Below are positions 23,101 to 51,528 of a DNA stretch of 59,971 nt, piece after piece. The stretch is from a virus. Every line of letters starts with the position of its first letter. The stretch's first letter is position 1. Location: IMG/VR virus record IMGVR_UViG_3300025769_000114, positions 1 through 59,971 of that record; one strand, written 5' to 3'. A model generated the notes under the pieces. That model worked only from the letters and a program-made list of their open reading frames with translations. It was not told where the DNA came from and made no database searches. Made by a program: the position numbers and the translations under genes.

Positions 23101-26100
23101 AAAAGCAATTATTCAGAGCGTTAGGCGTTCAACCCGGACGGGGATCAGACAACGACTACTTAGACGCTGCTGAAATACTGGCCGAAAAAGAGGGAGTACC
23201 CCGTGGACAAGTTGAAAAAGCACTCAGGGACGCAGACAGACAGCGAGCCGTCGATAGTCGGTCAGGTGCCAGAGGGCAAGATGGATCTGTTCGTCAAGAT
23301 GATTCAGGATTCGATGCGGAAGAAAGCCCAGCGTTCAGCAGAAGGCCAGAAAACCTAGCTAAAGAAGTAATCGGTCAAAGTGAAGTTGACCGTGTAGTAG
23401 AGGATAACTTACAGGTAGCCGAAAACAGGCCAGTAAGCACAGTTCCTCGCTTCAACCCCGGCGCAGACCCATACGCTCAAGCTGTTGCAGCTAACCCCGA
23501 CAAAGGTCAGGAAGTTCCAGCGAGCGAAATGCCAGCCTTTTCTAGAGCAAACGCCCCAATAATTAATCCACTAGATCAAGCTGCTGTAGACAATGTGGTC
23601 GCAGAGCTACCTACAAACACGCCGGGGCAGACCTACTTAAACGTCTTGGATCAAGGCCCAATAGCACTCAGCCTGACTCGACTCAAACAAAAAGCAATCA
23701 ACAGGTACGCACAACTTGAAAATTATCAGGGCGCGCTTGGTAATTTATTAGCTGATTCCTCGTCAATAGCTGCCGCGCTCATGGCTGACAGATCAAACGC
23801 CATCACTGCTGCGGCATTGCAGTACGGTGTTCCGGTCTACACAGGCGGCATGACTAAGATTGTTGACTTTGAACACACCAACAGTCGAGGCGAAACCCAA
23901 AAGATTGGCGGTCTTATTGACCTCATGTCTATGCTGTACACAAAAGAGCATGGATCTTTGGAGCAGTTAGCTCAGGCTTACTCAATAGCTAAAAGGGCTG
24001 AGAGGCTAAAAGCGAAGGGTATTGATGTACCCGGAACCCCGGCAGACCACGCAGCAAACATAGCTACAGCCGAGTCATTCTTGGATGAGAACGGCAACTC
24101 AATTATTAAGGACTGGTACGACGCTTGGCAGGACTACAACGGTTACACCGTTCAGTTCTTGCAAGACACAGGTGTTGTTGACCCAGAGACTGCTGAGATG
24201 TGGCGGGATCAGTCTGACTACATACCGTTTTATCGCCAAGTAGAAGGCGCTGAAACGCCAAATGCGCCGAATATATTCGGAGGATTAACTGGCAGCGCAG
24301 ACCTAAAAGCCATCAAGGGCAGCAAGAAAGAGATCAACGTGCCCATGTTGGAAGCCATATCAATGAACCTTAATGCGGCCATAAGCATGGGCATGAAGAA
24401 TGTCGCCCAGCAACGCATTGTCAGGGACATGAGAAATCTTGGTCTTGCAAGAGAGGTTAAGCCGGGGCAAAGAACCACTGGCGAGGCTGTTGTTACGTTC
24501 AAGGTAGACGGCAACCGACGCAACTTCATCATTGATGACCCGTTAATATATGAGTCGTTAACTGTTGAACCCGCTGGTGGGTTTGAGCAGTTTATATCTA
24601 AGACTGCTGGAGTCCCTGCACGATTCCTTAGAGAGATGGTCACCCGCGAGCCGGGGTTTGTTATAGCCAACATGCTCAGAGACTCATTGTCTGCATTTGT
24701 AACTTCAGGATCTAAGTTTACGCCCGTCATTGACACTATTTTTGGCTACGCAGAAGGCATGGAAAAGCTTGAGCGGACTGGCGTTGTAGGCGGTTATGAC
24801 TACAAGAATGACCCAGAAAACATTGGCGAGTACGCAGGGAAGATCCTGCAAAAAAGAAACAAGAACGTAAAACAGAGAGATCCTATCTCTAAACTCTTCA
24901 TTGGTGCTTGGGATGTGATGGGCCAAGCGACCACAAGGTCTGACGCCGCAACGAGAAACGCGGTCTATAAAGATGTCCTCGCTCGCACTGGCAACGAAGC
25001 TGAGGCAAGCTTTCAAGCAATGGAGGTTCTTAACTTCGGGCGTCGAGGCAGCAACGTTGGAATGCGTATACTTACAGCCACAATCCCATTCCTAAACGCA
25101 AGGCTTCAAGGATTGGACGTTCTATACCGAGGCCTATCAGGGAAGAGCAGTGCAAACAGAGAGCTTTCTAGGGGTCAAGCAGCTAGGAGTGCGTTCGCAA
25201 GAGGCTCGCTGATAGCCGCCAGTACAGCTATTTACTACGCAATGTTTAGCGATGATGAGCAGTACAAAGAACAGACAGAAGAAGTAAAAGATAATTACTG
25301 GATTATACCTACAGCGTCTGGTGTACCAGTACGAGTGCCGATCCCGTTTGAAGTTGGGTTGTTGTTTAAGACTTTGCCAGAGCGCATCATAGACTCATAC
25401 AACGAAGGCACTACACCCAGAGAAGCCCAGCAATCTGTTCAGCGAGCCGTATTTGGAACACTTGGCATTCAGCCACCGCAAGCGATCACGCCACTCATAG
25501 AAGCTTACATGAACTACGACCTGTACACTGGCCGACCTGTTACTCCAGTGTTCATAGAGGGCAACTTAGATCCACAATTCCAAGAGCTTGCATCCACCAG
25601 TGAGATCGCCAAGAACATGTCGAAGGTCGTTGGTATTAGTCCGATAAAAATAGATCACCTAATGAACGGATACGGCGGAACAATAGGTATGTACTTCTTA
25701 GGCGGCCTTGATTACGTGCTAAGAGACAGCTATGTGCAAGGTGACAACAGGGCTGTTCTTGCGGGTAAAGATGTTTCTCAGTACCCAATTATCAGACGGT
25801 TCTTTGGCTCAGAGTTCGGCGGTGGTGCAAAAGAAGACTTCTACGAGATGTGGGACTACATTAAGCGCGTAGAGCAAACAACTAAAAAGCTTTATGAAGA
25901 CGGCAGGACTGATGAGCTTGAGAGTTATCTCGTTAATAACAGACAGTTCTTGGGGCTGAAGTCTCAATTGCAGCCTACTGCAACGGCGCTATCCGACCTG
26001 CGGAATCAAAGAAGGACGATATTAAAAGCGGATCTAACAGCGGCGCAAAAGCAAGAGGCCATAAAGCTGATAAACGAACAAGAGCGTTACTACTTACAGA

Positions 26101-26180
26101 TTGTTCCTCAGCTTGAAAGATACATTCAGCTACCCACCATCGCTGAAAAAGTCGCAGACAGGCTATCGTCGCTTCTGTAG
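17145..26180 (+). CDS. Giant polyvalent internal protein (3011 aa)
   Basis: One uninterrupted 9-kb gene. Visible parts: N-terminal LPNGLVVYGVPEGTSKKDLA; membrane-like Ala/Gly segments near 130-200; a zincin-type HEMIH at 1035-1039, followed by an Asp/Glu-rich helix; an ASCH-like domain at about 1215-1320; an HEGRHR motif at 1455-1460; a long helical domain at 1600-2050; and a C-terminal region (about 2400-3011) resembling phage LPD38 polyvalent-protein domains. Four [VA]FSR sites (ending at 1357, 1571, 2066 and 2134) separate modules. It is probably packaged and ejected into the host as a multi-effector. Activities are inferred from motifs. It converges with, and overlaps by 18 bases, the minus-strand gene at 26163. 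Confidence 0.72.
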   Translation: MDVTLPNGLVVYGVPEGTSKKDLAEKLIRNNIATADELGFDPFEDERTASGQAFETAKGIGRGFANAFLSAGEGLAELADAGTNAIGLEELIDSGDENDLVRAAREGRAAVDEAMGADLAYRDQWLTKFGEGVGSFASFFTPAGAIKLAGMAGKGISAAKAAKVAEIGATGALAVGTGAGDQAQRIQAARDSGLEVSEDEEDLSVLLGGGVGLSELIVPQRLLNRLRGLEAGNKLPSGIKERLSSALRTGSVEGIQEVAASIAQDGIERGVYNEALEINGGSLMDDFTIGGAVGAGADLVINAVAGRRNKGAFQAAEEAEGKLREDLQDAQDARQRLLSGDLAIQERIDAEAALDRQAANEARRAAGEAPIDPSQIAPPTGRALTSKLKTPSRIVSVTAPNGESFQAEEKTRVRNKGKPTESVTTYIEAPGGGEVITSVNGVPQQSGFQITTVAQPTEGIQRRYPKQPMLAYAQSIRQTMGDNFPSADNTFTVKLPEDFGGVGASTTQLDAQGVPVFTVQDSNGQQYGVPLQNSEDAFALAGFLNDEMINDNVFSGGDAVITSSPESYDADQESSLQAYNFAANHPDSNTYSSVAVDSAAETTQDRGFDETADVKVLMQDRVGPTKMTASQRINAKRLRQGLPVTNTFTIQEVRSVLKEDQLYNLSDTRVNGLPETETYRAGLSKNNNPIVKSSAGEILQGRPLTTLEKDAAIKANPKKKPPKLVKFKTEADARVYANQLNNRTGKAAVEKGVMRNVDANFQEMEQLLKAKNITSKVGSPEIKYLAGRILGKKTIKSVNDLSLAESRLLYQKLRSLPRFDKPTKLPTFKLPKYTGAQFRAASKTLQENPNAGEVVLANATGINPTTQQGAAALSDLKADLAKQGVQAAPAVEAEPVVEQEAEVLALPAPAVNVDRLRKAITKTMKGFGLKDVGLSLDYALRTAVKDANGNLVYGIRPRQGGDIDSMVVGGESVTLDPSREKTQLVRSDEIDPEGRAEAYYDPTINTIFLSIDKVMADPSMTEAQVEAALLEILDHEMIHAMRKLDLFTNKEWSLLSRAAANKKMPDGKTFLKWAQDNYSDLSPVDQVEESVAELVRAARKDPKLLQGKPRSLVERIARFFRNMVSSLKGEEFNTFSEVIGGIESGAIGARERGQIRTLAQTQKRASRRLKTLQDKGAVVTTGEDAERPVPTATGQTIADFDEAPASSRVPIEAEMGINVRTDGDTNYAELIVSGQKKYETRDKDSLRPYVGKRIGIVETGSGPAKLVGYATVGEPIEVGEAEFADSRDQHLVPEGSKFDIKPGQSKFLYEMIDPEQLAQPIDASATKGIVARNISQLGGEAAPATDPDFAESPVFSREEGLTNEQVRAYIDSSPITQQFLDPKEVDQQFRDAVDPASRSTVVMMTPNEFLNLAMTGTEFSKTERVQEMFDAGERFQPNFLQFKANRRGAATIAGHEGRHRSRLYRDQGYGDTLMPVTLTSIGGEAGELRFGEKDARPRVLYKEDDRRLVGLTSESRVRDPDEKLRALEPFQLEFPKTIPFDLEGFAEDGTPVFKTKPLLADKDYDGPVFSRRPLSPMGEAERLGMTNTDLLPTSEELEQMKNNTYKPEKKRTLAEAAQFLQDRWEAATGRTEPFEYTEENIGILSDMLATEAMVALEKDGNAIGWYDRKIKAAKEVMKVVEPRIMQSPETEAVFDFVLAVTSNGQAVVDNFEMATDMFRFYMDKGRLPKNKKEFNKGGERNNAMLEAFNFHNAYEASGQNMRVADFLDADFTVNELRDMAKAFNNEVGFEAIKVPGAEGVDVQVKGSYILGPKIGQGFYQNIRGNYDPLTMDIWWMRMWNRAVGRPFAAPPDLAKARGELIPMIDKVGGLPRTIIKDALEGSDQPYSEIVKDPYLFDEFIQSVERRYQRYFKDYKKEHGVNHVKPEIFKKTGTFVKNLKKQLQATPKSGSERQYMREVTAAARERLSEAGYDITTADFQALMWYPEKQLFRALGVQPGRGSDNDYLDAAEILAEKEGVPRGQVEKALRDADRQRAVDSRSGARGQDGSVRQDDSGFDAEESPAFSRRPENLAKEVIGQSEVDRVVEDNLQVAENRPVSTVPRFNPGADPYAQAVAANPDKGQEVPASEMPAFSRANAPIINPLDQAAVDNVVAELPTNTPGQTYLNVLDQGPIALSLTRLKQKAINRYAQLENYQGALGNLLADSSSIAAALMADRSNAITAAALQYGVPVYTGGMTKIVDFEHTNSRGETQKIGGLIDLMSMLYTKEHGSLEQLAQAYSIAKRAERLKAKGIDVPGTPADHAANIATAESFLDENGNSIIKDWYDAWQDYNGYTVQFLQDTGVVDPETAEMWRDQSDYIPFYRQVEGAETPNAPNIFGGLTGSADLKAIKGSKKEINVPMLEAISMNLNAAISMGMKNVAQQRIVRDMRNLGLAREVKPGQRTTGEAVVTFKVDGNRRNFIIDDPLIYESLTVEPAGGFEQFISKTAGVPARFLREMVTREPGFVIANMLRDSLSAFVTSGSKFTPVIDTIFGYAEGMEKLERTGVVGGYDYKNDPENIGEYAGKILQKRNKNVKQRDPISKLFIGAWDVMGQATTRSDAATRNAVYKDVLARTGNEAEASFQAMEVLNFGRRGSNVGMRILTATIPFLNARLQGLDVLYRGLSGKSSANRELSRGQAARSAFARGSLIAASTAIYYAMFSDDEQYKEQTEEVKDNYWIIPTASGVPVRVPIPFEVGLLFKTLPERIIDSYNEGTTPREAQQSVQRAVFGTLGIQPPQAITPLIEAYMNYDLYTGRPVTPVFIEGNLDPQFQELASTSEIAKNMSKVVGISPIKIDHLMNGYGGTIGMYFLGGLDYVLRDSYVQGDNRAVLAGKDVSQYPIIRRFFGSEFGGGAKEDFYEMWDYIKRVEQTTKKLYEDGRTDELESYLVNNRQFLGLKSQLQPTATALSDLRNQRRTILKADLTAAQKQEAIKLINEQERYYLQIVPQLERYIQLPTIAEKVADRLSSLL

Positions 26181-34179: not shown

Positions 34180-34242
34180 TGGTTGGGTAAAAGGGTTTAC
34201 TGATTGGGTAGGGATGTAGGATTGCAGGACGCAAGCCTTATC

Positions 34243-34258
34243 TATTGACTGGTCAATA
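34243..34258. repeat. Palindrome TATTGAC-TG-GTCAATA
   Basis: A perfect 7+7 inverted repeat in the convergent intergenic region between the primase operon and the minus-strand operon. The 2-base spacer suits a protein-binding site better than a hairpin. Role unknown. Confidence 0.4.
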
Positions 34259-34272
34259 AAAGGGAAGGGGGG

Positions 34273-34307
34273 AACCCCTAACCAAGCGGGGGCGCTTGGC
34301 TGGGGTT
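34273..34307 (-). terminator. Strong hairpin, probable terminator of the minus-strand accessory operon
   Basis: The inner stem CCAAGCG/CGCTTGG (7 bp, loop GGGG) is extended by AACCCC/GGGGTT over a small internal loop. On the minus strand it is followed by C/T-rich sequence (CCCTTTTATT). It lies 52 bases beyond the last minus-strand gene. Confidence 0.6.
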
Positions 34308-34358
34308 ATGAAAACGCAGGAGTCCGATAAGTAGAACGTAAAATGCTTTAGCGGTCAA

Positions 34359-34496
34359 CTACGGACATTCGGGACATAACAAGTACATACGGCCATCATC
34401 GTCCTGCTCTTCGTGCATCTCAGCACCGCAGTCATCGCAGATGTCGGCGTCGAACTCGTAAGGGTTATGGAAAGAACTATCGGGGCGCTCAATCAT
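34359..34496 (-). CDS. Tiny zinc-ribbon protein (45 aa)
   Basis: The ATG overlaps the TGA of the upstream gene (TGATG). Two cysteine knuckles, CDDC and CPEC, about 18 residues apart predict a zinc ribbon; the rest is very acidic (EEQDDDGR). It is the last gene of the minus-strand operon, followed by the hairpin at 34273-34307. Function unknown. Confidence 0.6.
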   Translation of the reverse strand: MIERPDSSFHNPYEFDADICDDCGAEMHEEQDDDGRMYLLCPECP

Positions 34497-34729
34497 CAGT
34501 GAAGCTCCCCGTCTGGGCAGGTGCATTCCTCATCCTGCTTTACCAGAAAGTCGCAATAATCAGACGCTGCCTGTACACAAACCAGCGATGCCTCTTGCGG
34601 ACTGTCTACGCCATAAGCCGCCATGATGATGCCCATGATCACAGACATCTGCCACGGGCCTTCTATCTCGCTAGGCAGTGCCGACATGATTGATTGCTTC
34701 ACTTTTTCAAACTCTTCTTGTGAGTTCAT
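34496..34729 (-). CDS. Hypothetical acidic protein (77 aa)
   Basis: GGGAG lies before the ATG. It is helical (EEFEKVKQSIMSALPSEI), with a hydrophobic middle (SVIMGIIMAAYG) and three C-terminal Cys (YC, CTC). It is coupled at both ends to neighbours. No family recognised. Confidence 0.55.
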   Translation of the reverse strand: MNSQEEFEKVKQSIMSALPSEIEGPWQMSVIMGIIMAAYGVDSPQEASLVCVQAASDYCDFLVKQDEECTCPDGELH

Positions 34730-34730
34730 A

Positions 34731-35129
34731 TTATCTCCCTGTGTTGATTTTGCTTAGCTCTTCTTTTGTTGCGGGGCGGTATCCCATTTCCTCTTCTGTA
34801 TAGAGGTCGAAAACAGAAGGTATGGAATCATCTGCGTTCCAGCAATCAAGGCAGCGGCCTTGTAAGGTGTGCTTAGGGTTGGCGTAATCAGATGGAATCC
34901 GCACCCCGCACTTTTTACATACAGGCACTTGCAAGACGCTATCCTCTTCAGCCTCATCAGTGCCTGAAACAAACCAAAACGGAACGAACAACAGCATCGT
35001 TGCCATCGGGAAAGATATTGCAGGGTATAGCCCAACGCCTTCGCGCATGTACTCAAACCCTAGAAACGCCATAGCTCCAGAGAGCGCAGCGCAAGACAAC
35101 GAAACCGACACCGTGATATATGGGTGCAT
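34731..35129 (-). CDS. Membrane-anchored zinc-ribbon protein (132 aa)
   Basis: GGAG is placed 8 bases before the ATG. Two membrane segments (VSVSLSCAALSGAMAFLGF and ISFPMATMLLFVPFWFVSG) are followed by a cytoplasmic zinc ribbon (CKKC ... CLDC) and an acidic tail (DLYTEEEMGYRPATKEEL). The anchor-plus-zinc layout suggests a membrane-bound host-interaction protein; no homologue was recognised. Confidence 0.55.
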   Translation of the reverse strand: MHPYITVSVSLSCAALSGAMAFLGFEYMREGVGLYPAISFPMATMLLFVPFWFVSGTDEAEEDSVLQVPVCKKCGVRIPSDYANPKHTLQGRCLDCWNADDSIPSVFDLYTEEEMGYRPATKEELSKINTGR

Positions 35130-35423
35130 GTCTATTCTCCAACAAATAATTAAATGAATGCCAAGGCTTTACTGGGACTTATTGGTTTGGCCCATGAGGT
35201 CGCATCTCTGTCGCTCACCACAGGTTGGTCTTCCCTGTGCGTGCCCTGCACCATACCCGTACCCATACCCGCGCATCGTGCAAGGTGACTCGCGGCGGTG
35301 GGTTTGCATTACTTCAATGTTCTATCTCCCGTAATGATGCGGATTGCATCGGAGTGCCTACCAAGGCAGACACTGCGCTGAAATCAGAGAGCAGTTTTGC
35401 ATCGTACTCAGGATGGTTCGCGG
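35130..35423. other. Gap without a well-supported gene
   Basis: Only a 35-codon minus-strand frame (35169-35276, starting MRGYGYGYGAG) is present, without a ribosome site. No clear terminator, tRNA or repeat was found. It may be a long leader of the 132-residue gene. Confidence 0.35.
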
Positions 35424-35654
35424 CTACTGCCGCTGTTGGAAGTTATGTACCAGCACCATCATGAACTGGCCGTTAGTGAGTTTGTATGGCAGATCTTTTT
35501 CGTACTCAGCTTTTGCCTCGCGAAACGCCGCTGCACATTCATCTTTCACTAACAGGCTGTGGCCTGTTTCATCGGCGTTCTTGGGTGGCCTACCGCGTCC
35601 ACGGCTCAAGGGCAGTTCACCCCTAGTGCCATCAGCATTTATTTTCACGTTCAT
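35424..35654 (-). CDS. AT-hook-like small protein (76 aa)
   Basis: The start MNVKINAD (35654) has GGAG upstream; an ATG at 35672 is alternative but lacks a ribosome site. The segment RGRGRPPKN is an AT-hook-like minor-groove motif. The C-terminal helix-rich part (DECAAAFREAKAEYEKDLPY) could dimerise. A DNA-binding regulator is plausible. Confidence 0.55.
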   Translation of the reverse strand: MNVKINADGTRGELPLSRGRGRPPKNADETGHSLLVKDECAAAFREAKAEYEKDLPYKLTNGQFMMVLVHNFQQRQ

Positions 35655-35683
35655 ATCTACGCTCTCCGTCATTTTGATGTTAA

Positions 35684-35697
35684 GGGGCCGAAGCCCC
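35684..35697 (-). terminator. UUCG-tetraloop hairpin after the VWA gene
   Basis: GGGGC-UUCG-GCCCC followed by UUAA, overlapping the VWA gene stop codon. It has the same stem and loop as the hairpin at 37942-37955. With a short U-run, it may be a weak terminator or a 3'-end stabiliser. Confidence 0.55.
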
Positions 35698-37028
35698 TAG
35701 GTTACTTTGATGATTTCACCAAAAGGCTCACAGCCTCGCCACATAGGGTCGCGGTCAGTGGTTGCCCAGAACACCGGATAGTCAGGCATGGTGAAGTCGT
35801 GCCGTGCATTAGGCCCAACCTCGCCCCAGCCATCGGTGAAGTAGATCATCGCGCATGGTTCGATATCGTTGCGCTCAACATAGTTGAACGGTGGATTGAA
35901 CTCAGTACCGCCGAACTCAGGAATCTTGAGCGTTAGCTCTTCATGCCTGTCGAACTCCTCGACACCGCACACTACATCGTGGCAGTAAATGACCACAGTC
36001 TTGATAGGCTGCACCTCGTCAATGATGTCCTGCACATGCCCAGCATTCATATCCAACTCTTCCTGAGTCATGGAGTAGCTGACATCCTGCACCACAACCA
36101 ACTCACCGTTAGGCTCGCGGTTTTGCGTGGGCAGTATCAAGCCTTGCGATAGCAGCCGACGATTGGGTCGAGCATAGGTATGCTCAGACAAAACGAACTG
36201 ATCAAACGCAGACTTGAGGTGCTGGTGCCAAGGCACCGGATCACCAGAGAATCCGCTGATGATCTGGTCAACACTCGCGCCTCGACCAGAGCCACTGTCG
36301 CGGATCTTCTCATGGGCCTTAGCAGCCTCAAACACTTGCGAAGCGATCTCGCGCTCAGCTTCAGCCTTAGCGGCCTCAGACATACCCTGCCCATCGTCAC
36401 CAGCAGCCTCCCATACCTCGCCCCAAGGCGCGTCAGGATCAGCAGGGCCATCACCAGCAGCGGAGCCACTGTCGCCCTCACCGTCGCCCTCAGCGCCGCC
36501 AGAGCTAGGCTGGTCGCCGTCTTGGGTGCCGTTGTCGCCAGCCTGTGCCTGACCTTCGCCATCGTCGCACTGCTCGCCCTCGCCTTCATCGTTGCTGGGC
36601 TGGTCACCCTCAGACTGAGGCTGTGGCTTGCTGATAATTGTGTAGATCTGCTCAGCAGACATACCAATGTAGTCGGTGCTGTAGAGGCCACCGAAAACAT
36701 CGAACCCGTCACGCACTAGCGCGTAGTTGATTGCGTAGTCGGCAGCTTCGTTCCACAGCTTGTGGTCACGGTTACCCTTGCGTAGGTGATGGAACCCATC
36801 AACGTGCATCACCTCGTGGGCAATCACGGTCATGATGAACCGCACACCGTGTTCCTTTTCCTGCCCGACAACCCACTGCTCATTGAAGTGGATAGCCTTG
36901 CCATCGGTTGCCATCGTCGCAGTCTTGGTGCTGGGGATCAGCTCCAGTTGATATGCGCGGAAGGCAAAGTAGGGGAAGGTTTTCAGAAGGCGCTTGCGCG
37001 CCTCTAGAATGATCTGCATAGCATCCAT
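35697..37028 (-). CDS. VWA-domain putative metallopeptidase, DUF2201-like (443 aa)
   Basis: The start MDAMQIIL has GGAG 8 bases upstream; a longer frame to 37094 overlaps the previous gene. HEVMH at 71-75 with E94 is a zincin motif. The middle (about 140-240) is a Gly/Asp/Gln-rich acidic linker. The C-terminus is a VWA-like domain with MIDAS residues D315, S317, S319, T375 and D399. This joint architecture is the DUF2201 type and works with MoxR-like ATPases. The partner ATPase is two genes upstream. Phage N4-like genomes also carry AAA/VWA pairs, of unclear role. Confidence 0.78.
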   Translation of the reverse strand: MDAMQIILEARKRLLKTFPYFAFRAYQLELIPSTKTATMATDGKAIHFNEQWVVGQEKEHGVRFIMTVIAHEVMHVDGFHHLRKGNRDHKLWNEAADYAINYALVRDGFDVFGGLYSTDYIGMSAEQIYTIISKPQPQSEGDQPSNDEGEGEQCDDGEGQAQAGDNGTQDGDQPSSGGAEGDGEGDSGSAAGDGPADPDAPWGEVWEAAGDDGQGMSEAAKAEAEREIASQVFEAAKAHEKIRDSGSGRGASVDQIISGFSGDPVPWHQHLKSAFDQFVLSEHTYARPNRRLLSQGLILPTQNREPNGELVVVQDVSYSMTQEELDMNAGHVQDIIDEVQPIKTVVIYCHDVVCGVEEFDRHEELTLKIPEFGGTEFNPPFNYVERNDIEPCAMIYFTDGWGEVGPNARHDFTMPDYPVFWATTDRDPMWRGCEPFGEIIKVT

Positions 37029-37041
37029 AACTATTACTCCG

Positions 37042-37923
37042 TTAATCCCATAGGCCAGTGAGGTTATCCACAATGGACTTGGCAGTGTCAGCAACAGCCT
37101 TGCGCTCAGTCTTGGACTCGCGCAGCTTGGCTGGGTCTAGGTCTGCAAGCTTGGTCAGCAGGGCGTTGCCAGCTTGGGTCAGCTTGGGGTCACCCGTGAT
37201 GTTAAGGCTGGGCAGCACAGCAGCCAGTTCCTCAATCTTTTCGACAGTGTTGTCGGTGAACTTGCTCGCACGCTTGGCACCGTCAGCCTTGATGCCGTGA
37301 CGCTCTAAGCCGTCGATCAGAGCCTGTAAGGTATCGACTACACGCTCATGCACAGACTCAGCAGCAGCCTCGACGCGCTGAGTGATACGGGCCTCGGTGT
37401 CGGCCTTTATCTTGGCAATCTTTTCTGCGGGTAGGTTGACTCTGATATCGCCAGAATCAGGCATAGCGCGAAGCTCATAGCTGAACTGGTACTTGCTAAT
37501 GATGTACTCAGGCGAGGGGTAGTCGTTAATGTCGAAAGACAAGCCGGAGTTGATTGCAGCATCTTTAAGAATTTTAGGCCACTCGCGCACGACCTCGCGC
37601 TTTAGCTCTTCTGCATAGTCAACTTTCTTGATCCACTCAGCCTCAAAGGTTTCGATGTTCTCGACAGGCATAAGCCTGACCCCATCTTCCCAAGGTACGC
37701 TCAGCGGGTTGAGGACTGTATTGCGTAGTTGCCCAACAATCCTACTCAAAGCTTTGATTGGCGCGGCCTCTAAAAGCCGTCGTGTAACGGTGAAGCTTTT
37801 CGGGTTGCCCTGTTGGCGAGCGGCCACATCAGCAGACAGTTCTGCGTCTCTTGTTTTGTTAGCGAACTTGGTGATTGTTGCTGTAACCAGCATTGCGTTG
37901 TTTTGGATCTTATCCATAGTCAT
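37042..37923 (-). CDS. Helical protein of the MoxR-VWA cluster (293 aa)
   Basis: The start MTMDKIQ (37923) has GGAG just upstream; the frame continues to 38094 inside the ATPase gene without a site. The protein is mostly alpha-helical, with a central alpha/beta part (RLMPVENIETFEAEWIKKVD) and a basic C-terminal helix pair. It lies between the ATPase and VWA genes and is likely the third part of their complex. No specific family can be confirmed. Confidence 0.6.
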   Translation of the reverse strand: MTMDKIQNNAMLVTATITKFANKTRDAELSADVAARQQGNPKSFTVTRRLLEAAPIKALSRIVGQLRNTVLNPLSVPWEDGVRLMPVENIETFEAEWIKKVDYAEELKREVVREWPKILKDAAINSGLSFDINDYPSPEYIISKYQFSYELRAMPDSGDIRVNLPAEKIAKIKADTEARITQRVEAAAESVHERVVDTLQALIDGLERHGIKADGAKRASKFTDNTVEKIEELAAVLPSLNITGDPKLTQAGNALLTKLADLDPAKLRESKTERKAVADTAKSIVDNLTGLWD

Positions 37924-37941
37924 TGACTCCGAAATAGTAAA

Positions 37942-37955
37942 GGGGCCGAAGCCCC
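37942..37955 (-). terminator. UUCG-tetraloop hairpin between ATPase and helical-protein genes
   Basis: GGGGC-UUCG-GCCCC followed by UUUA on the minus strand, 8 bases beyond the ATPase stop and upstream of the next gene's ribosome site. It could be a partial terminator that sets stoichiometry, or mRNA end protection. Confidence 0.55.
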
Positions 37956-37963
37956 GTTGGGGT

Positions 37964-39055
37964 TTAGCGAGTGGCCTTGTGGGCCACATACTCAGGGGTT
38001 GATAGCAGGTCTGCATCGCGGCGCGTTGCCAGCGCCCAGAACACCTCGACCAGTTCTTCGTTGATGCGCTTGAGAACAACCACTGCATTGCCAAGGTTGT
38101 CAGTGGTCACCCGTGCAGCCAGCGCAGCGGTCACTGCATACTGAGTAGTGATCTCATTCGGCAGCGGCACGTTGTGCGGATCTGACAGAAACAAGTTGAT
38201 GTCTGGCAGGTTACGCATGGTGCGGACAAACGCCATAAACTCAGCGGCAGCGCCGAATCCTACGGCACCCTCAATGGCGATCTGCTCAAGATCAGCAGGT
38301 AAATCGTCACTGAGAATGTCAGACACTGATTGCCAGCCGCGAGGTGTAGCGATAGCCACCCTGTCTTTAGGTGTGCCGCCATCGGGGAACTCGTGAATGA
38401 GTCCGGCCTGATCACCTGATGCCTCACCGCGAAACTTCAGGAACGCAACCACAAGCGGGTTAGCGCCAGTGTCTGCAAGGTAGTCGCTGGTCTCAGCAGC
38501 GGACGGCACAACATCCAAGTGATACTTGAATCTTGTACTTACGGCAGCGTCGATGCGGCCAGACACACCAGCACCGTCATTGGGTCGATTAGATGCAGCG
38601 ATAACAAACCAGCCCTTGGGCAGGATGTAGTCGCCAAGCCGACCATCGTTTAGTAGCTGGTAAGACGCGAATTGCGCTGATTGAGTGCCAAGCATTAGCT
38701 CATCCATAAGCAAGCAGCCCTCTGGGCCGTCGCGCTCCACGTTGGGTAGCCATGATGGCGTAGACCATTCGGTTGTGGATGCTTCGCCGTCGCCGCTGAT
38801 GTACGGGACACCGCGAGTATCGACTGCATCCAACTGTGACAGGCGTACATCAATCAGGCCTATCGGTCTGTCGAGAGTCTTGGAAAGCTTTTCCATAGCC
38901 TGACGGACGATTGAGGACTTAGCTGCCGCGTAGATGCCCCACAGAAATATAGGCAACTGGCGCTTGTCGCTAGACAGTTGAGAGGTCGCATGTGCGAGTA
39001 TTAGTTGTGCAGCCTGTGAAGGGCTGACTTTCGGTGCGTTTATTGATTTAGTCAT
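37964..39055 (-). CDS. MoxR-like AAA+ ATPase with degenerate P-loop (363 aa)
   Basis: LWGIYAAAKSSIVRQ is at the Walker A place (G40 to S47), but both inner Gly are Ala (GIYAAAKS instead of GPPGxGKS). Walker B LLMDEL (D118, E119) and sensor-1 asparagine N156 in AASNRPND are intact, as is the arginine-containing GRIDAAVSTRF. This places it in the MoxR/CobS-like AAA+ group, chaperones that act with VWA proteins. Upstream 5' UTR begins at the cleavage site of the hammerhead at 39091-39151. Confidence 0.78.
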   Translation of the reverse strand: MTKSINAPKVSPSQAAQLILAHATSQLSSDKRQLPIFLWGIYAAAKSSIVRQAMEKLSKTLDRPIGLIDVRLSQLDAVDTRGVPYISGDGEASTTEWSTPSWLPNVERDGPEGCLLMDELMLGTQSAQFASYQLLNDGRLGDYILPKGWFVIAASNRPNDGAGVSGRIDAAVSTRFKYHLDVVPSAAETSDYLADTGANPLVVAFLKFRGEASGDQAGLIHEFPDGGTPKDRVAIATPRGWQSVSDILSDDLPADLEQIAIEGAVGFGAAAEFMAFVRTMRNLPDINLFLSDPHNVPLPNEITTQYAVTAALAARVTTDNLGNAVVVLKRINEELVEVFWALATRRDADLLSTPEYVAHKATR

Positions 39056-39090
39056 AACTAGTCAATGCTCCAAAGTTAAGGTTGTTGGTT

Positions 39091-39151
39091 ATCCAAGACC
39101 GCCCAGAGGGCGGTTTCACGCTGGTCACCAGCCAGCACTCGTCAGTTGGAT
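39091..39151 (-). ncRNA. Type I hammerhead ribozyme 1
   Basis: Minus-strand parts in order: stem I 5' strand AUCCAA (39146-39151), core CUGACGA (39139-39145), stem II GUGCUGG/CCAGCGU, core GAAA (39114-39117), stem III CCGCCC/GGGCGG with UCU loop (39099-39113), cleavage triplet GUC ending at 39097, and stem I 3' strand UUGGAU (39091-39096). Predicted cleavage lies between 39097 and 39096. The first two base pairs of stem II are G-U and U-G wobbles, which could slow cleavage. It sits between the 69-residue gene and the ATPase gene. Confidence 0.87.
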
Positions 39152-39360
39152 TAGGTCTCTAGGGTTGCAGCAGGGTCGAACTTCCATTGATCTGCAAGCT
39201 TGTAATAGAGGCGAGCAAACTGTTTGCGCTTTGCAATGTTGAACGATGGAGTCTCAACATGGGGGTTGCGGTCTCCATCCGCCTTTGCCAGCGCCTCAAG
39301 CAAATCCAATACCTCAGATCGGGCTTGTTCTTGCGGTGTGTGTCCGTACTTGTTTCTCAT
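39151..39360 (-). CDS. Hypothetical protein (69 aa) between the two ribozymes
   Basis: GGAG lies before the ATG. It is a helical basic protein (SEVLDLLEALAKAD, KRKQFARLYYKLADQWKF). Its TAA stop is immediately at the first base of hammerhead 1, so ribosomes ending here would cover the ribozyme's 5' strand. No family recognised. Confidence 0.58.
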   Translation of the reverse strand: MRNKYGHTPQEQARSEVLDLLEALAKADGDRNPHVETPSFNIAKRKQFARLYYKLADQWKFDPAATLET

Positions 39361-39385
39361 TGGTTATGCTCCGTAGTTGGAATGG

Positions 39386-39610
39386 TTAGTCAGAACCCCA
39401 AGGTCTGGCGTTCAGCTTTTTAAGTCGGGCACCAGACACCGTGGCATCCATGACGGCACCTGACCAAGCACGATTGGTTAGCTCTACCAAATGCTCGCCG
39501 TTGTGGCCTTTCCAGAATGCGGTGCCTGTTGTTACCCATGTCTGATGCTTGAGTCCTTTAACTGGCACAACCACATCGGTGTCCACTCTTATCTGTTGCT
39601 TTTCGTTCAT
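39386..39610 (-). CDS. Hypothetical protein (74 aa) downstream of hammerhead 2
   Basis: ATG is preceded by GAGGATAAAG. The mRNA made by hammerhead 2 cleavage would carry a 24-base 5' UTR with this site. The protein is beta-rich (VDTDVVVPVKGLKHQTWV) with a basic C-terminal region (GARLKKLNARPWG). Function unknown. Confidence 0.58.
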   Translation of the reverse strand: MNEKQQIRVDTDVVVPVKGLKHQTWVTTGTAFWKGHNGEHLVELTNRAWSGAVMDATVSGARLKKLNARPWGSD

Positions 39611-39626
39611 CTTTATCCTCAGTCGG

Positions 39627-39693
39627 TTTTCCAAGACCGTGCCTCCTACACGGTTTCACGCCACTAACCAAGCGGCACTCATCAGTTGGAAAA
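39627..39693 (-). ncRNA. Type I hammerhead ribozyme 2
   Basis: Minus-strand parts in order: stem I 5' strand UUUUCCAA (39686-39693), core CUGAUGA (39679-39685), stem II GUGCCGC/GUGGCGU, core GAAA (39654-39657), stem III CCGUG/CACGG with UAGGAGG loop (39637-39653), cleavage triplet GUC ending at 39635, and stem I 3' strand UUGGAAAA (39627-39634), a perfect 8-bp stem I. Compared with hammerhead 1, stems II and III differ by compensatory changes while the core is conserved. Predicted cut is between 39635 and 39634. Confidence 0.9.
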
Positions 39694-39933
39694 GGTTAGG
39701 TTATCGGTGAACAGCTTGAGTTCTGCGTGTTCCCAGCGGTCTAGCCAATCGACCTGAGCCTTAACCTGCGGCCAGCGCAGGGTGTGGCCTGTCTGCTTTT
39801 CGTAGTCGGCAAGTATCTGATCGGACAACTTGCCAATGCTCAGAATCCATTGCAGCCGTTCACGGTTGCTCAGGTTGGTGCGGTCTAGGTTCTGCTTGAT
39901 GTCATCAATGTCTGAGTTGTACTGCTCAATCAT
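39682..39933 (-). CDS. Hypothetical protein (83 aa) upstream of hammerhead 2
   Basis: The start overlaps the upstream stop. It is helical and acidic (DIDDIKQNLDRTNLSNRERL, QVDWLDRWEHAELKLF). Its TGA stop codon is inside the CUGAUGA core of hammerhead 2, so translation termination and ribozyme folding compete for the same bases. No family recognised. Confidence 0.58.
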   Translation of the reverse strand: MIEQYNSDIDDIKQNLDRTNLSNRERLQWILSIGKLSDQILADYEKQTGHTLRWPQVKAQVDWLDRWEHAELKLFTDNLTFSN

Positions 39934-40328
39934 TTGGTGAGTCCCTCGTTGATTGCATAGTCGGCAGCTTGGTTGTATTGACGCATCTGCATATGCGCCC
40001 GATGCGCTGCTTCGTGCTTTTCAATGAAATCAACGGCAGCGATCATCTGCTTGGTCGCGTTCTCAAGCTCGCGGCGAGGCATGTATGACTCAAGCTCTAA
40101 AGCTTTGTCGTGCCATATCTCCTCTTGACGCAGATGGATTCTCCGCTTGGCAGCCATTGCACTGGTGTCCTGATCTCCCGCCCACTCAGCGGAGTCAACG
40201 TGGAAATCGACACGGCGTTGTGCCTTCACCCAATCAACGACGGTGCGCTGATGCTTGGGGTTGATAGCCTTGATTGCGTTCGCAACGGCCAAGTAATCAT
40301 CTATTTTTGGTTGCTGTTGTTTGGTCAT
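39930..40328 (-). CDS. Hypothetical His-rich helical protein (132 aa)
   Basis: A strong GGAGG lies upstream, within the previous gene. The protein is helical, with AVDFIEKHEAAHRAHMQMRQ, a zincin-like arrangement of His and Glu (EAAHRAH) that may bind metal, and YNQAADYAINEGL near the end, a segment like NEAADYAINYAL of the VWA metallopeptidase at 35697. A metal-binding or truncated peptidase-like role is a guess. Confidence 0.55.
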   Translation of the reverse strand: MTKQQQPKIDDYLAVANAIKAINPKHQRTVVDWVKAQRRVDFHVDSAEWAGDQDTSAMAAKRRIHLRQEEIWHDKALELESYMPRRELENATKQMIAAVDFIEKHEAAHRAHMQMRQYNQAADYAINEGLTK

Positions 40329-40330
40329 GG

Positions 40331-40477
40331 CTAGAAGCCTCCCATTGAGATAGCGCCGTGGGCGCGGGTTGTTGTTTTGATCTTGGCAACGATTGCACGC
40401 TTGCGTTCGATCAGTCGGTTAAGGAATAGGCGGCGGCGATTGTGTCGCAGTACCCGTTGTCGTTCTTGGTGTGTCAT
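40331..40477 (-). CDS. Small highly basic protein (48 aa)
   Basis: GGAG is 7 bases before the ATG; the stop lies in the next gene's ribosome site. The sequence is rich in Arg/Lys (RQRVLRHNRRRLFLNRLIER) and ends GAISMGGF, so it probably binds nucleic acid. It is the first supported gene after a long structured leader. Confidence 0.55.
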   Translation of the reverse strand: MTHQERQRVLRHNRRRLFLNRLIERKRAIVAKIKTTTRAHGAISMGGF

Positions 40478-40707
40478 CACTCACTCCATAGTTCAGTTCA
40501 TCAATAGCCACTCAGTAAGTGGTCATTGGTGAGCCGAAGCTCTGCCGCATCCCAGCTCGTTGGGCATTGTCAGGATCAAAGGCCGACTGAGTAGCATTGC
40601 CCTGTACAGGGACGAGCCTCACCCAGCCGTTCAACCTCAGACCTTCACCAATGCTTTAGTTCTGGCTGCTGCGGCAAACAGCGCGTGTCTTGGTCTGCAT
40701 GTGTGAC

Positions 40708-40728
40708 TGCCCATTGATTGTCGGTACG
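40708..40728. repeat. 21-bp direct repeat, unit 1
   Basis: TGCCCATTGATTGTCGGTAC followed by G, identical to 40794-40814, start-to-start distance 86 bases. Confidence 0.7.
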
Positions 40729-40793
40729 GCACACTGCTCGCCTCTCACGCCCCAGAACATTTCCCCGTCTGGTAGGTGCATCCGATGCCGCAT

Positions 40794-40814
40794 TGCCCAT
40801 TGATTGTCGGTACG
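40794..40814. repeat. 21-bp direct repeat, unit 2
   Basis: Exact copy of 40708-40728; flanked by GGTGCATCCG on both sides (40774 region and 40817 region), so the duplication unit may be longer. Confidence 0.7.
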
Positions 40815-40871
40815 AGCGGTGCATCCGGTGGATGGCGGGATTGGGTACGGCTCCCCGTCGCCGTTGAGTGG

Positions 40872-40901
40872 ATTATACGCACAGGTGAACGCAGTACGCA
40901 A
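40872..40901 (-). promoter_or_regulatory. Candidate promoter of the accessory operon
   Basis: On the minus strand TATAAT (40872-40877) lies 18 bases after TTGCGT (40896-40901), a weak -35 with a perfect -10. It would start transcription near 40865, making a leader of about 390 bases before the 48-residue gene. Confidence 0.35.
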
Positions 40902-42014
40902 TACTCAGTAACCAATAAATGTTTAACGGTTGTAGATACAACGAATGGCTCAGAGAAAAATTACAGGGGCGTTGATGCAGGCCACGAGCAAAGTCGATTT
41001 GACTATTAGATGAAACGCGCACGCGAATAGCAGATAGCAGTACTCAATACAAGTATTGACAAGCAAATAAGTAGCAAATAGTCAGTAACGAGTAGAAAGT
41101 ACTTAGTAATCAACAACTTAGATACGAATTCCCGTCTAAGCGTTTTTCACGATGAACTGGTGCATATGTATGGCTTAGGCAAAACAGGCCTTAGAACGCA
41201 ATTCTGGGCGTCCTATCGGCAAGTGCGAAATGTCAAGCTTTATCTATGTACTGGTTACTGGGTACTGGTGGCAGACGGCCAAGCTGGGCGGCGGTATGAT
41301 TCCGGCAAACAGGCAGCACGGTATCGGAACATGGGCAAACCCAAGTCAGGACTCACAGCTAAACAGCGGCACTTTGCATTGGCATTGGGCAGCGGTGCAG
41401 GCATGACATTAAGTGATGCATACAGGGAGGCATACGATTGCAAGAATATGAGCGCGGCAGCCATCAGGACGGAAGCCAGCAGGCTTGCAGCGAACCCTGC
41501 CATTACCCTATTGATTGAGCAGCAAAGGGAGCGGACTCAGCGTGCAGCATCGGCCTCTGAGGTCGGAGACCGTGACCGTGTTTTACAGCGCCTGCGGCAG
41601 TGGATGGATGATGCCGAGCCTACCGATACAAACAAGCTGAAGGCTGCACAGCTACTTGGTCAGACCGTGGGCATGTTCAAGGATGTGGTAGAGACCAACA
41701 GCGGTGACCGTGCCAGCACCGAGGTAGCCGCCGAGATAGAACGACGCTTGGCAACACTGCAAGCAGCAGCCGAGCCTAAGCCTAAGCCTGACAGTCTGCA
41801 CTAGTGGCAACAGTACACCATACGCAAACGGTTACAGTACGCTGCACACAATACGCTAACCGTTGTACACCCCCTGCCTCTCAGCGAAATTGTCTATCAT
41901 TTTGCATACCCCTACCCCCCCTATAGCCAGTTGCGTGCCACCGTCTATATACATAGTAAAACGCTCAAATAATTACCTAAAAAATATATAGTCCGTAAAC
42001 AGTACGCAGTACAC
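40891..42014. repeat. Dispersed CAGTAC repeats, iteron-like
   Basis: Units with CAGTAC plus a nearby ATAC lie at 40891-40912, 41037-41050, 41811-41829, 41834-41856, with a variant at 41999-42014. They flank the terminase small subunit gene. A palindrome TCAATAC-AA-GTATTGA lies at 41044-41059, and an 8+8 inverted repeat AACGGTTA/TAACCGTT at 41827-41864. The gap 40902-41330 holds no other feature. Origin or packaging-region role is inference. Confidence 0.4.
41331..41804 (+). CDS. Terminase small subunit (157 aa)
   Basis: The start MGKPKSGLTAKQRHFAL is chosen because homology-like sequence begins here; the frame is open to 41160 but that part looks non-coding. SDAYREAYDCKNMSAAAIRT, then EASRLAANPAITLLIEQQRE is the typical HTH-plus-helix pattern of Terminase_2-type small subunits, which recognise pac/cos DNA. 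It is followed by the operator/promoter region and terL. Confidence 0.75.
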   Translation: MGKPKSGLTAKQRHFALALGSGAGMTLSDAYREAYDCKNMSAAAIRTEASRLAANPAITLLIEQQRERTQRAASASEVGDRDRVLQRLRQWMDDAEPTDTNKLKAAQLLGQTVGMFKDVVETNSGDRASTEVAAEIERRLATLQAAAEPKPKPDSLH

Positions 42015-50009: not shown

Positions 50010-50918
50010 ATGGCAATTTCAAGAGCGCAAATGCTTAAAGAACTCCTGCCGGGGCTTAACGCCTTATTTGGTTTGGAGTACGAAAAATACGAAGACGAAC
50101 ACACTCTCATTTATGAGACTGAAAGTTCTGATCGTTCTTTTGAGGAAGAAGTGAAGTTGAGCGGCTTTGGTGCTGCTCCCGTTAAAGCTGAGGGTTCTGC
50201 AATCTCTTACGATTCAGCGCAAGAAAGCTATACGGCTCGCTATAATCACGAGACGATTGCGATGGGCTTCGCCATCACCGAGGAAGCGATGGAAGACAAT
50301 CTTTACGATTCTCTTTCTGCTCGCTACACCAAAGCTTTGGCACGGGCTATGGCCTATACCAAGCAAGTTAAAGCAGCGAATCCGCTTAACAATGGTTTCA
50401 CCAGCTTCCAATCTGGAGATGGTGTTACGTTGTTCAACGCTTCGCACCCATTAGTTAACGGTGGAACAAACTCTAACCGTCCATCTACTGGTGCTGACTT
50501 GAACGAAACATCGCTTGAGCAAGCAATCATTGAGATTGCAGCGTTCACCGATGAGCGTGGTCTGCTTATCGCAGCCCGTCCTCGTAGCTTGGTTGTTCCT
50601 CCTGCACTGATGTTTACAGCAGATCGTCTGCTTGAAACCACTCAGCGCGTTGGTACTGCTGACAACGACATCAACGCTATCCGCAATATGGGTGCAATCC
50701 CCGGCGGATATGCTGTTAATCACTATTTGACTGACAGCAATGCCTTCTTCATCATGACTGATGTACCGAATGGCATGAAGATGTTTGAGCGTACCGCTCT
50801 AGAAACGAGCATGGACGGAGACTTCGATACGGGTAACGTGAGATATAAAGCTCGCGAACGCTATTCCTTCGGGGTAAGCGACCCACTCGGAATTTACGGA
50901 TCTCCCGGCTCTAGCTAG
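50010..50918 (+). CDS. Major capsid protein, HK97 fold (302 aa)
   Basis: AAGGAG lies upstream. N-terminal MAISRAQMLKELLPGLNALF, then GFAITEEAMEDNLYDSLSAR and a C-terminal KARERYSFGVSDPLGIYG are typical of a compact HK97-fold capsid family related to Mu gpT-like heads. A strong terminator follows directly, consistent with high expression from a defined transcript. Confidence 0.85.
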   Translation: MAISRAQMLKELLPGLNALFGLEYEKYEDEHTLIYETESSDRSFEEEVKLSGFGAAPVKAEGSAISYDSAQESYTARYNHETIAMGFAITEEAMEDNLYDSLSARYTKALARAMAYTKQVKAANPLNNGFTSFQSGDGVTLFNASHPLVNGGTNSNRPSTGADLNETSLEQAIIEIAAFTDERGLLIAARPRSLVVPPALMFTADRLLETTQRVGTADNDINAIRNMGAIPGGYAVNHYLTDSNAFFIMTDVPNGMKMFERTALETSMDGDFDTGNVRYKARERYSFGVSDPLGIYGSPGSS

Positions 50919-50932
50919 AGTGACGTAACTTT

Positions 50933-50967
50933 GAACAGGGCTGCTTTCGAGTGGCCCTTGTTCTTTT
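50933..50967 (+). terminator. Terminator after the major capsid gene
   Basis: Stem GAACAGGGC / GCCCTTGTTC with one bulged base and an 12-base loop, followed by TTTT. It lies 14 bases after the capsid stop. Confidence 0.7.
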
Positions 50968-50977
50968 CCTGACTAAT

Positions 50978-50993
50978 TGTTTCACATGAAACA
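50978..50993. promoter_or_regulatory. parS-like palindrome
   Basis: TGTTTCACATGAAACA matches the bacterial ParB-binding parS site (TGTTTCACGTGAAACA) in 15 of 16 positions. It lies between the capsid terminator and the next ribosome site. The phage shows no parA/parB, so any ParB would be the host's. Confidence 0.5.
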
Positions 50994-51021
50994 TTTAGAC
51001 TAACCCAGACAGGAGACTACA

Positions 51022-51528
51022 ATGGGTACTACGACTTTCACGGGTGCAGTTCGTTCTGAAAGCACCTTCAAAACTGTAAGCAAAGACAGCACTTCTGGTG
51101 CTATTACTGAAGTTGCAACTATCGGTGACGGCCCCGTTAGCCTTGCTGATGGCAACGTAACCTTAACTAACGCCACTCACAGCGGACGAATACTGCTGGT
51201 TCCAGATGGCGGACAAGACAACACCTATACCTTACCAGCGCCTATTGCTGGATCTGTGTTTAGGTTTGTTTACGCTGGCGGTGCCGCTGACGCAACTGAT
51301 GCGCTTATCGTTACCCCCGGAAACACTAATTTTTACATTGGTGGTGTTACTTTCCTTGATACTGACAACGAAGTTAGTGCAGTTTTTTCTGATGGCAACT
51401 CAAATAGCAGCATTCAGTTAAACGTACCTGCTGGCTTTGATGTAACGATTATTGGTTTGAACACAACCAATTATCAGATCTTCGGCACTGTTACGGGCGC
51501 AACTGCACCTGCATTTGCTGATCAGTAA
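51022..51528 (+). CDS. Small beta-rich virion protein (168 aa)
   Basis: GGAG is upstream. It is Thr/Gly/Ala-rich, predicted all-beta (HSGRILLVPDGGQDNTYTL, FDVTIIGLNTTNYQIFG), in keeping with a head-decoration or fibre-base protein. Thr-rich composition resembles the fibre N-terminus but without detectable identity. Confidence 0.6.
   Translation: MGTTTFTGAVRSESTFKTVSKDSTSGAITEVATIGDGPVSLADGNVTLTNATHSGRILLVPDGGQDNTYTLPAPIAGSVFRFVYAGGAADATDALIVTPGNTNFYIGGVTFLDTDNEVSAVFSDGNSNSSIQLNVPAGFDVTIIGLNTTNYQIFGTVTGATAPAFADQ

What the first reader, a model, noticed from the sequence alone, without database searches (positions are those of the whole stretch)
39091..39693. Two complete type I hammerhead ribozymes in one phage operon
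Both minus-strand elements have every hammerhead part in order: stem I, CUGANGA, stem II, GAAA, stem III, GUC cleavage site, stem I. Between the two copies stem II (U-A to C-G, G-C to C-G) and stem III differ by compensatory changes while the core stays constant, which is strong evidence for function. Hammerheads are known in phages and metagenomes, but a pair at successive gene joints of an operon, bracketing two small genes and preceding a MoxR-VWA module, suggests programmed cutting of a polycistronic mRNA. Expected products begin at 39634 and 39096, 24 and 41 bases before start codons. The G-U/U-G pairs opening stem II are the only weak point.
Basis: partly seen in the sequence, partly recalled or inferred. 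Interest (0 to 1): 0.95.

Follow-up and report, generated by a model that had tools for sequence, protein, structure and literature searches.

The report
Self-cutting RNAs between phage genes
This marine phage carries two well-supported self-cutting RNA elements (hammerhead ribozymes) at gene joints; relatives show that one of them sits in front of the phage's MoxR gene even in phages whose MoxR is only 25-29% alike, so a long-suspected but unproven job, cutting long phage messages into single-gene ones, becomes directly testable.

Summary
Rfam finds nothing above its cut-off, but relatives settle it. In 13 relatives sharing the odd G-U/U-G base of stem II, all 260 pair cells are standard and nine pairs have changes on both sides. 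A scan that ignored stems I and III gave 11 of 12 distinct viral matches forming both, against 0 of 9 cellular ones.

The bracketed pair is not the conserved unit. One hammerhead always stands before moxR (9 of 9 window-lineage loci read gene by gene) while the genes before it are swapped. Phages with MoxR 25-29% identical also have one 50-82 bases before moxR in 39 of 62 loci (0 of 1240 shuffles). Across 202 phage hammerheads, 180 lie between two same-strand genes (random sites 11.5%).

Best reading: the ribozyme makes the 5' end of the downstream gene's mRNA. Cleavage itself is untested. Clustered hammerheads in prophages were reported in 2011, so this is a new member of a known kind; I found no report of the moxR linkage or of ribozyme-supplied stop codons.

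The parts
39625..39690 (-). Hammerhead ribozyme 1, type I with pseudoknot; cleavage expected between 39635 and 39634
   Evidence: sequence; fold z -2.9; model R1 67.5 bits (member of the training set); covariation
39087..39150 (-). Hammerhead ribozyme 2, type I with pseudoknot, directly before moxR; cleavage expected between 39097 and 39096
   Evidence: sequence; RF00163 23.2 bits below cut-off; fold z -3.1; covariation; constant before moxR in relatives
39667..39669 (-). Loop II GGU of ribozyme 1, pairs with ACC 39627-39625 (pseudoknot)
   Evidence: 117 of 117 pseudoknot cells paired in 39 ribozymes, five different pair sets; 0 of 20000 shuffles as high
39127..39129 (-). Loop II GGU of ribozyme 2, pairs with ACC 39089-39087 (pseudoknot)
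   Evidence: as above
39682..39684 (-). Stop codon UGA of the 83-aa gene, which is the invariant UGA of the ribozyme 1 core; last codons UCC AAC lie in stem I
   Evidence: unrelated genes in L006, L023, L206 and L026 end in the same SN-stop
39682..39933 (-). 83-aa gene of unknown function, upstream of ribozyme 1
   Evidence: no family; homologues in L002, L003, L009, L010
39386..39610 (-). 74-aa gene of unknown function between the ribozymes (ATG 39610, 24 bases after the cleavage site)
   Evidence: no family; identical protein in L005-L008
39151..39360 (-). 69-aa gene of unknown function; its stop codon (39153-39151) touches ribozyme 2
   Evidence: no family
37964..39055 (-). MoxR-like AAA ATPase, 363 aa, ATG 41 bases after the cleavage site
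   Evidence: phrog_1297 E 2.5e-55
37042..37917 (-). Middle gene of the operon, about 290 aa; start codon inferred
   Evidence: a gene of similar size holds the same place in L270
35697..37028 (-). Metallopeptidase/VWA-like protein (DUF2201), last gene of the MoxR-VWA operon
   Evidence: PF13203 5.2e-30, PF09967 4.7e-12

Best explanation
Both elements are pseudoknotted type I hammerhead ribozymes at gene joints of one minus-strand operon. Once transcribed, each folds and cuts the message after the C of GGUC. The upstream piece ends in the stem III hairpin with a 2',3'-cyclic phosphate; the downstream piece starts with a 5'-OH and a short leader (24 or 41 bases) that carries the next gene's ribosome site. 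The ribozyme acts chiefly as a portable 5'-end maker for the gene after it, above all moxR: it gives moxR the same mRNA start whatever small gene stands before it, while that accessory region is exchanged between phages. Shown here: structure, covariation, position, linkage to the downstream gene. Inferred: cleavage, effect on mRNA stability and translation, benefit to the phage.
For: Covariation: 99.8% of 609 cells paired and 11 pairs changed on both sides in 35 ribozymes; 100% of 260 cells in the 13 with this lineage's stem II. These rows were picked by a finder that asks for stems, but the pseudoknot was not asked for and still pairs in 117 of 117 cells. A retrieval that ignored stems I and III gave both in 11 of 12 distinct viral and 0 of 9 distinct cellular matches. 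Position: 180 of 202 phage hammerheads lie between two sense genes (random sites 11.5%); the next ATG is a median 31 bases after the cleavage site; a Shine-Dalgarno-like motif in 172 of 197. Linkage: homology blocks between contigs start at the ribozyme's 5' edge and run into the downstream gene for 49 of 213 elements outside this lineage, but end at its 3' edge coming from the upstream gene for only 15. moxR: a ribozyme before it in all 9 window-lineage loci read gene by gene, with six different genes upstream; in 39 of 62 distant MoxR loci, 0 of 1240 shuffles, 13 of 132 other genes in the same loci; same operon order in L270. In that distant clade the released leader begins with a hairpin (fold z -1.5 to -5.0 in 21 leaders).
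Against: No cleavage data. Rfam's curated models do not call the elements, though canonical relatives are missed too. The invariant G-U/U-G pairs add one pair to stem II compared with canonical relatives, and adding a stem II pair slowed another pseudoknotted hammerhead (PMC3088659). The moxR link is not universal: 23 of 62 distant loci and four cultured phages with moxR (Acinetobacter XC38, Enterobacter EcP1, Vibrio D456, cyanophage S-TIM61) have none. Loci are not independent samples. The released leaders in the window itself hold only a weak hairpin.
Confidence: 0.68

Rival explanations
1. The ribozymes are kept mainly as exchange joints: conserved stretches at which small gene cassettes recombine between phages, with mRNA cutting making any new junction harmless.
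For: Homology between relatives begins exactly at the first ribozyme base (query positions 910 and 1451). L002's single ribozyme has ribozyme 1 on its left and ribozyme 2's downstream flank on its right, with the two genes between missing. The 74-aa gene is 100% identical in protein in L006 while MoxR is 78% identical. The 5' edge carries 0.59 block starts per element against 0.14 per ordinary gene junction.
Against: Only the 5' edge is enriched, not the 3' edge, and stems are kept by compensatory change rather than by identity, which a mere homology arm would not need. Homology naturally appears to end at a conserved element.
Confidence: 0.15
2. Translation-coupled switch: ribosomes ending on the upstream gene, whose stop codon lies in or at the ribozyme, hold it unfolded, so cutting reports on upstream translation and sets the balance between linked and separate messages.
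For: The upstream stop is the core UGA in 33 and inside stem I in 44 of 185 cases, and 6-15 bases upstream in 82. In the window the 83-aa gene stops on the core UGA and the 69-aa gene's stop directly abuts ribozyme 2.
Against: The stop-in-stem count is partly built in, because one scan pattern contained CTAACTGA. Compact phage genomes put stops close to any intergenic element.
Confidence: 0.1
3. RNA circles or a mobile RNA element: two like ribozymes release a unit that is closed into a circle, as in retrozymes.
For: Two like hammerheads lie 540 bases apart and flank two genes.
Against: Several relatives have a single copy; the flanked genes differ and none resembles a mobility gene; spliced or circular products were looked for and not found in similar prophage arrays (PMC3088659).
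Confidence: 0.03
4. Catalytically dead structured elements, such as 3' hairpins protecting mRNA, or degenerate hammerheads.
For: Non-canonical base of stem II; below the Rfam cut-off.
Against: Every catalytic core base is invariant while stems vary, although the core was required by the searches; a protecting hairpin would not need the core or the pseudoknot.
Confidence: 0.04

Closest known systems
Pseudoknotted type I hammerhead ribozymes and clustered prophage hammerheads (Perreault et al. 2011, PMC3088659)
   Same: Same core, same stem order, loop II to stem I flank pseudoknot, several copies on one strand flanking small phage genes; the mRNA-cutting idea and cleavage of three such arrays in vitro were reported there.
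   Different: Stem II here opens with G-U/U-G and is one pair longer; the setting is a marine phage MoxR-VWA operon; the link to moxR, the stop codon inside the core and the conservation with the downstream gene are not mentioned there.
Hammerhead ribozymes enriched near Mu-like phage genes and near other ribozymes (cited in PMC10085705)
   Same: Phage setting and clustering; that paper says the biological reason is unknown.
   Different: A MoxR-VWA operon in a tailed phage; no Mu-like genes were noticed around it.
HHphage of haloviruses HF1 and HF2 (PMC3088659)
   Same: A hammerhead 13 bases before the start codon of a phage gene, in an operon.
   Different: Structural variant; helicase gene; archaeal virus.
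Theta ribozymes of gut phages (HDV-like, PMC10879173)
   Same: Self-cleaving RNAs used in phage genomes, probably for RNA processing.
   Different: Different fold, next to tRNAs, not at mRNA joints.
MoxR/VWA gene pair of N4-like phages (gp24/gp25)
   Same: Same two protein families, adjacent.
   Different: No hammerhead in the four cultured phages with MoxR that were checked, two of them N4-like.

Membership tests
Hammerhead ribozyme, type I | Core CUGANGA, GAAA and UH at the cleavage site | tested here: met
   invariant in 35 relatives except the N
Hammerhead ribozyme, type I | Three stems around the core, ends in stem I, loops on II and III | tested here: met
Hammerhead ribozyme, type I | Tertiary contact between loop II and the stem I side | tested here: met
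   pseudoknot covaries: GGU/ACC, AGU/ACU, AGC/GCU, GAU/AUC, GGU/ACU; shown by pairing only, not by structure
Hammerhead ribozyme, type I | G10.1-C11.1 pair at the base of stem II (usual, not strictly required) | tested here: inconclusive
   G-U in both copies and 13 of 13 close relatives; G-C in 206 of 220 phage hammerheads; G-C with a bulged U in L003 and in one copy each of L023 and L206
Hammerhead ribozyme, type I | Score above Rfam gathering cut-off (a library threshold, not a biological criterion) | tested here: not met
   23.2 against 34 bits, and 15.3 against 52 bits; canonical type I relatives in the same library also missed
Hammerhead ribozyme, type I | Self-cleavage to 2',3'-cyclic phosphate and 5'-OH | not testable with these tools
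   needs the bench
Clustered phage hammerheads | Several same-strand hammerheads flanking small phage genes | tested here: met
   two in the window; 56 of 179 loci have at least two, mostly 300-1200 bases apart
Retrozyme-like circular RNA | Flanking ribozymes on a repeat unit that forms circles | not testable with these tools
   no RNA data; several relatives lack the pair

The most novel reading that the evidence does not exclude
Tailed phages hold a conserved ribozyme-gene pairing: a type I hammerhead that makes the 5' end of the moxR mRNA in MoxR-VWA operons of highly diverged phages, within a wider scheme in which operons are built from exchangeable small-gene cassettes headed by ribozymes whose 5' half also supplies the stop codon of whatever gene comes before.
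Probability: 0.45. Interest if true: 0.75.

Novelty: new member of a known kind. Interest (0 to 1): 0.6.

Why it matters
What hammerheads do in phages has been open since 2011; a later paper still says the biological reason for their gene associations is unknown (PMC10085705). A ribozyme kept in front of one gene family across phages with 25-29% identical proteins, at a short distance from the start codon and with the upstream gene free to change, points to a specific and testable job: making the 5' end of that gene's mRNA.

Tried and rejected
Rfam at gathering cut-off: no hit in the window; kept as a caveat, because canonical relatives were missed as well. Copies elsewhere in the window: model R1 gave only 14-15 bit hits at 21397-21472 and 38829-38889, E 0.2-0.3, taken as chance. 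Annotated phage collection: no relative by DNA; finder and model found nothing in the first 50 kb of HTVC027P and DSL-LC04. Cellular genomes: the lineage pattern gave 9 matches, none folding. UUGG/CCAA hairpin on the released leader as a refolding switch: possible but weak (-3.0 and -1.5 kcal/mol, no better than shuffles); not claimed. Defence function for the small genes: no padloc match except a marginal one for the 132-aa gene. A promoter before moxR: no sigma-70-like site on the minus strand of 34200-41400, which fits one transcript but is weak evidence.

Full report
WHAT IS THERE. On the minus strand the two elements read (stem letters lower case, core upper case) uccaa CUGAUGA gugccgc uugguua guggcgu GAA accgug uaggagg cacggu C | uugga aaACC and uccaa CUGACGA gugcugg cugguga ccagcgu GAA accgccc ucu gggcggu C | uugga uaACC. 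Both fold better than shuffles. The bare core pattern occurs by chance now and then; the full shared motif does not. Rfam calls neither at its cut-off, but it also misses canonical type I relatives.

RELATIVES. A search with the MoxR protein and a DNA pattern scan found relatives in IMG/VR. The scan pattern fixed only CUGANGAGUGC...GCGUGAAAC...GUC and said nothing about stems I and III; 11 of 12 distinct viral matches form both stems, and none of 9 distinct matches in the cellular genome collection does. In the 13 relatives with this lineage's stem II all 260 cells are standard pairs and nine pairs have changes on both sides; sliding the partners gives 32-43% paired and no such pair. In 35 phage hammerheads with a long stem II, 99.8% of cells are paired and 11 pairs have changes on both sides. 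The pseudoknot between loop II and the three bases after stem I was not used to select sequences; it pairs in 117 of 117 cells with five different pair sets. Such a contact was found critical for fast cleavage by Perreault et al. (PMC3088659).

THE WEAK POINT. G-U/U-G at the base of stem II is shared by the lineage (the scan pattern asked for it), but at the same locus L003 and one copy each of L023 and L206 have GUGC/GCC (a bulged U with G-C below it), and the other L206 copy is canonical GGC/GCC. The wobble form is therefore a lineage variant with one extra weak pair. Because one added stem II pair slowed another pseudoknotted hammerhead (PMC3088659), activity of this form needs a test.

CONTEXT. 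The operon runs 132-aa gene, 83-aa gene, ribozyme 1, 74-aa gene, 69-aa gene, ribozyme 2, moxR, middle gene, metallopeptidase/VWA gene. Terminase, portal, capsid, tail-fibre and primase/helicase genes mark a tailed phage; its terminase is about 55-59% identical to those of Pelagibacter phage HTVC027P and phage DSL-LC04. Gene order between a conserved 49-aa gene and moxR varies. L002 and L003: long gene, 83, ribozyme, moxR. L004: 63, ribozyme, moxR. L005-L008: a different gene, ribozyme, 74, ribozyme, moxR. L009: 139, 83, 63, ribozyme, moxR. L010: 128-like, 83, ribozyme, moxR. L023: 128, ribozyme, 38, 58, 55 or 75, ribozyme, moxR. L206: 66, 55, ribozyme, 38, ribozyme, moxR. One ribozyme always precedes moxR, after six different genes. 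Homology with the window resumes exactly at the first ribozyme base. L002's ribozyme joins ribozyme 1's body to ribozyme 2's downstream flank, as expected from a crossover between the two or from the reverse event. In several unrelated genes the last codons UCC AAC and the stop UGA lie in the ribozyme.

GENERALITY. 56 of 179 loci have two or more, always on one strand, up to nine in one contig. Of 202 with enough flank, 180 lie between two sense genes (11.5% for random sites), the next ATG is a median 31 bases after the cleavage site, and the upstream stop is usually within 15 bases of the core or inside the ribozyme. Homologous blocks start at ribozyme 5' edges far more often than at ordinary gene junctions (0.59 against 0.14 per element). 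Outside this lineage 49 of 213 elements are shared together with the downstream gene but only 15 with the upstream gene. The ribozyme thus seems to belong to the gene after it.

MOXR. The largest protein family directly downstream is MoxR, including six loci from the pattern scan, which made no use of MoxR, whose MoxR is 25-29% identical to a window-lineage MoxR, L206. Searches with two of these gave 62 loci with usable flank; 39 have a hammerhead 50-82 bases before moxR, against 13 of 132 other genes of at least 120 aa in the same loci and 0 of 1240 shuffled upstream regions. L270 has the same operon order: ribozyme, MoxR, 330-aa gene, VWA-type gene. There the released leader starts with a stable hairpin in most of 21 cases. 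The link is not universal: 23 of the 62, and four cultured phages with moxR, show none.

MECHANISM. Shown: structure, covariation, position, linkage. Inferred from hammerhead chemistry: cleavage leaves a 5'-OH leader with a ribosome site on the downstream message and a hairpin with a cyclic phosphate on the upstream one. Inferred as purpose: a fixed 5' end for moxR independent of the variable genes before it. Exchange joints and translation-coupled switching are compatible additions, listed as rivals. My probabilities: genuine type I hammerheads 0.95; cleave in the cell 0.8; main role 5'-end making for the downstream gene 0.68.

PRIOR ART. Perreault et al. 2011 reported clustered hammerheads flanking prophage genes, suggested processing of long phage transcripts, and showed cleavage of three arrays in vitro and one in E. 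coli. I found no paper joining hammerhead ribozymes with MoxR, and no mention of stop codons or recombination in that paper; the library holds open-licence papers only. Hence new member of a known kind, with an association that I did not find described and that can be tested.

LIMITS.

Noticed in passing
window 37964-39055: The MoxR of the window and of L002 has a degenerate Walker A (GIYAAAKSS) where L003 and more distant relatives keep G-Y-G-V-G-K-S; ATP binding may be altered or lost.
   Followed up: partly
window 50967-51024: Sub-threshold Rfam match to Mu-gpT-DE RNA (27.9 bits, cut-off 49, E 0.026) directly after the capsid-like gene 50010-50918.
   Followed up: no
L127, L133, L210, L174, L034: Arrays of five to nine type I hammerheads on one strand of a viral contig, mostly 300-1200 bases apart.
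   Followed up: partly
L234:2465-3418, L126:301-1857: Hammerheads directly before an anti-restriction protein (phrog_7245) and before a phage RNA polymerase (phrog_414); an ardA link was noted in PMC3088659.
   Followed up: no
L194:1084-1147: A type II hammerhead above the Rfam cut-off in the same contig as a type I element.
   Followed up: no
L278, L284, L319, L326 upstream of moxR: Hammerhead variants whose stem II starts with a U-U mismatch (CUGAUGA UUAGC...GCUAU GAAA), and L293-L296, L324 with an extra U after CUGANGA; possible further natural variants at the base of stem II.
   Followed up: partly
window 17145-26180: A 3011-aa open reading frame, by far the largest in the window, not identified.
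   Followed up: no
L009 around 4690: The 83-aa gene homologue is not followed by a ribozyme here and its frame runs on past the usual SN-stop (ends TNGA), as if the ribozyme had been lost with the junction.
   Followed up: no
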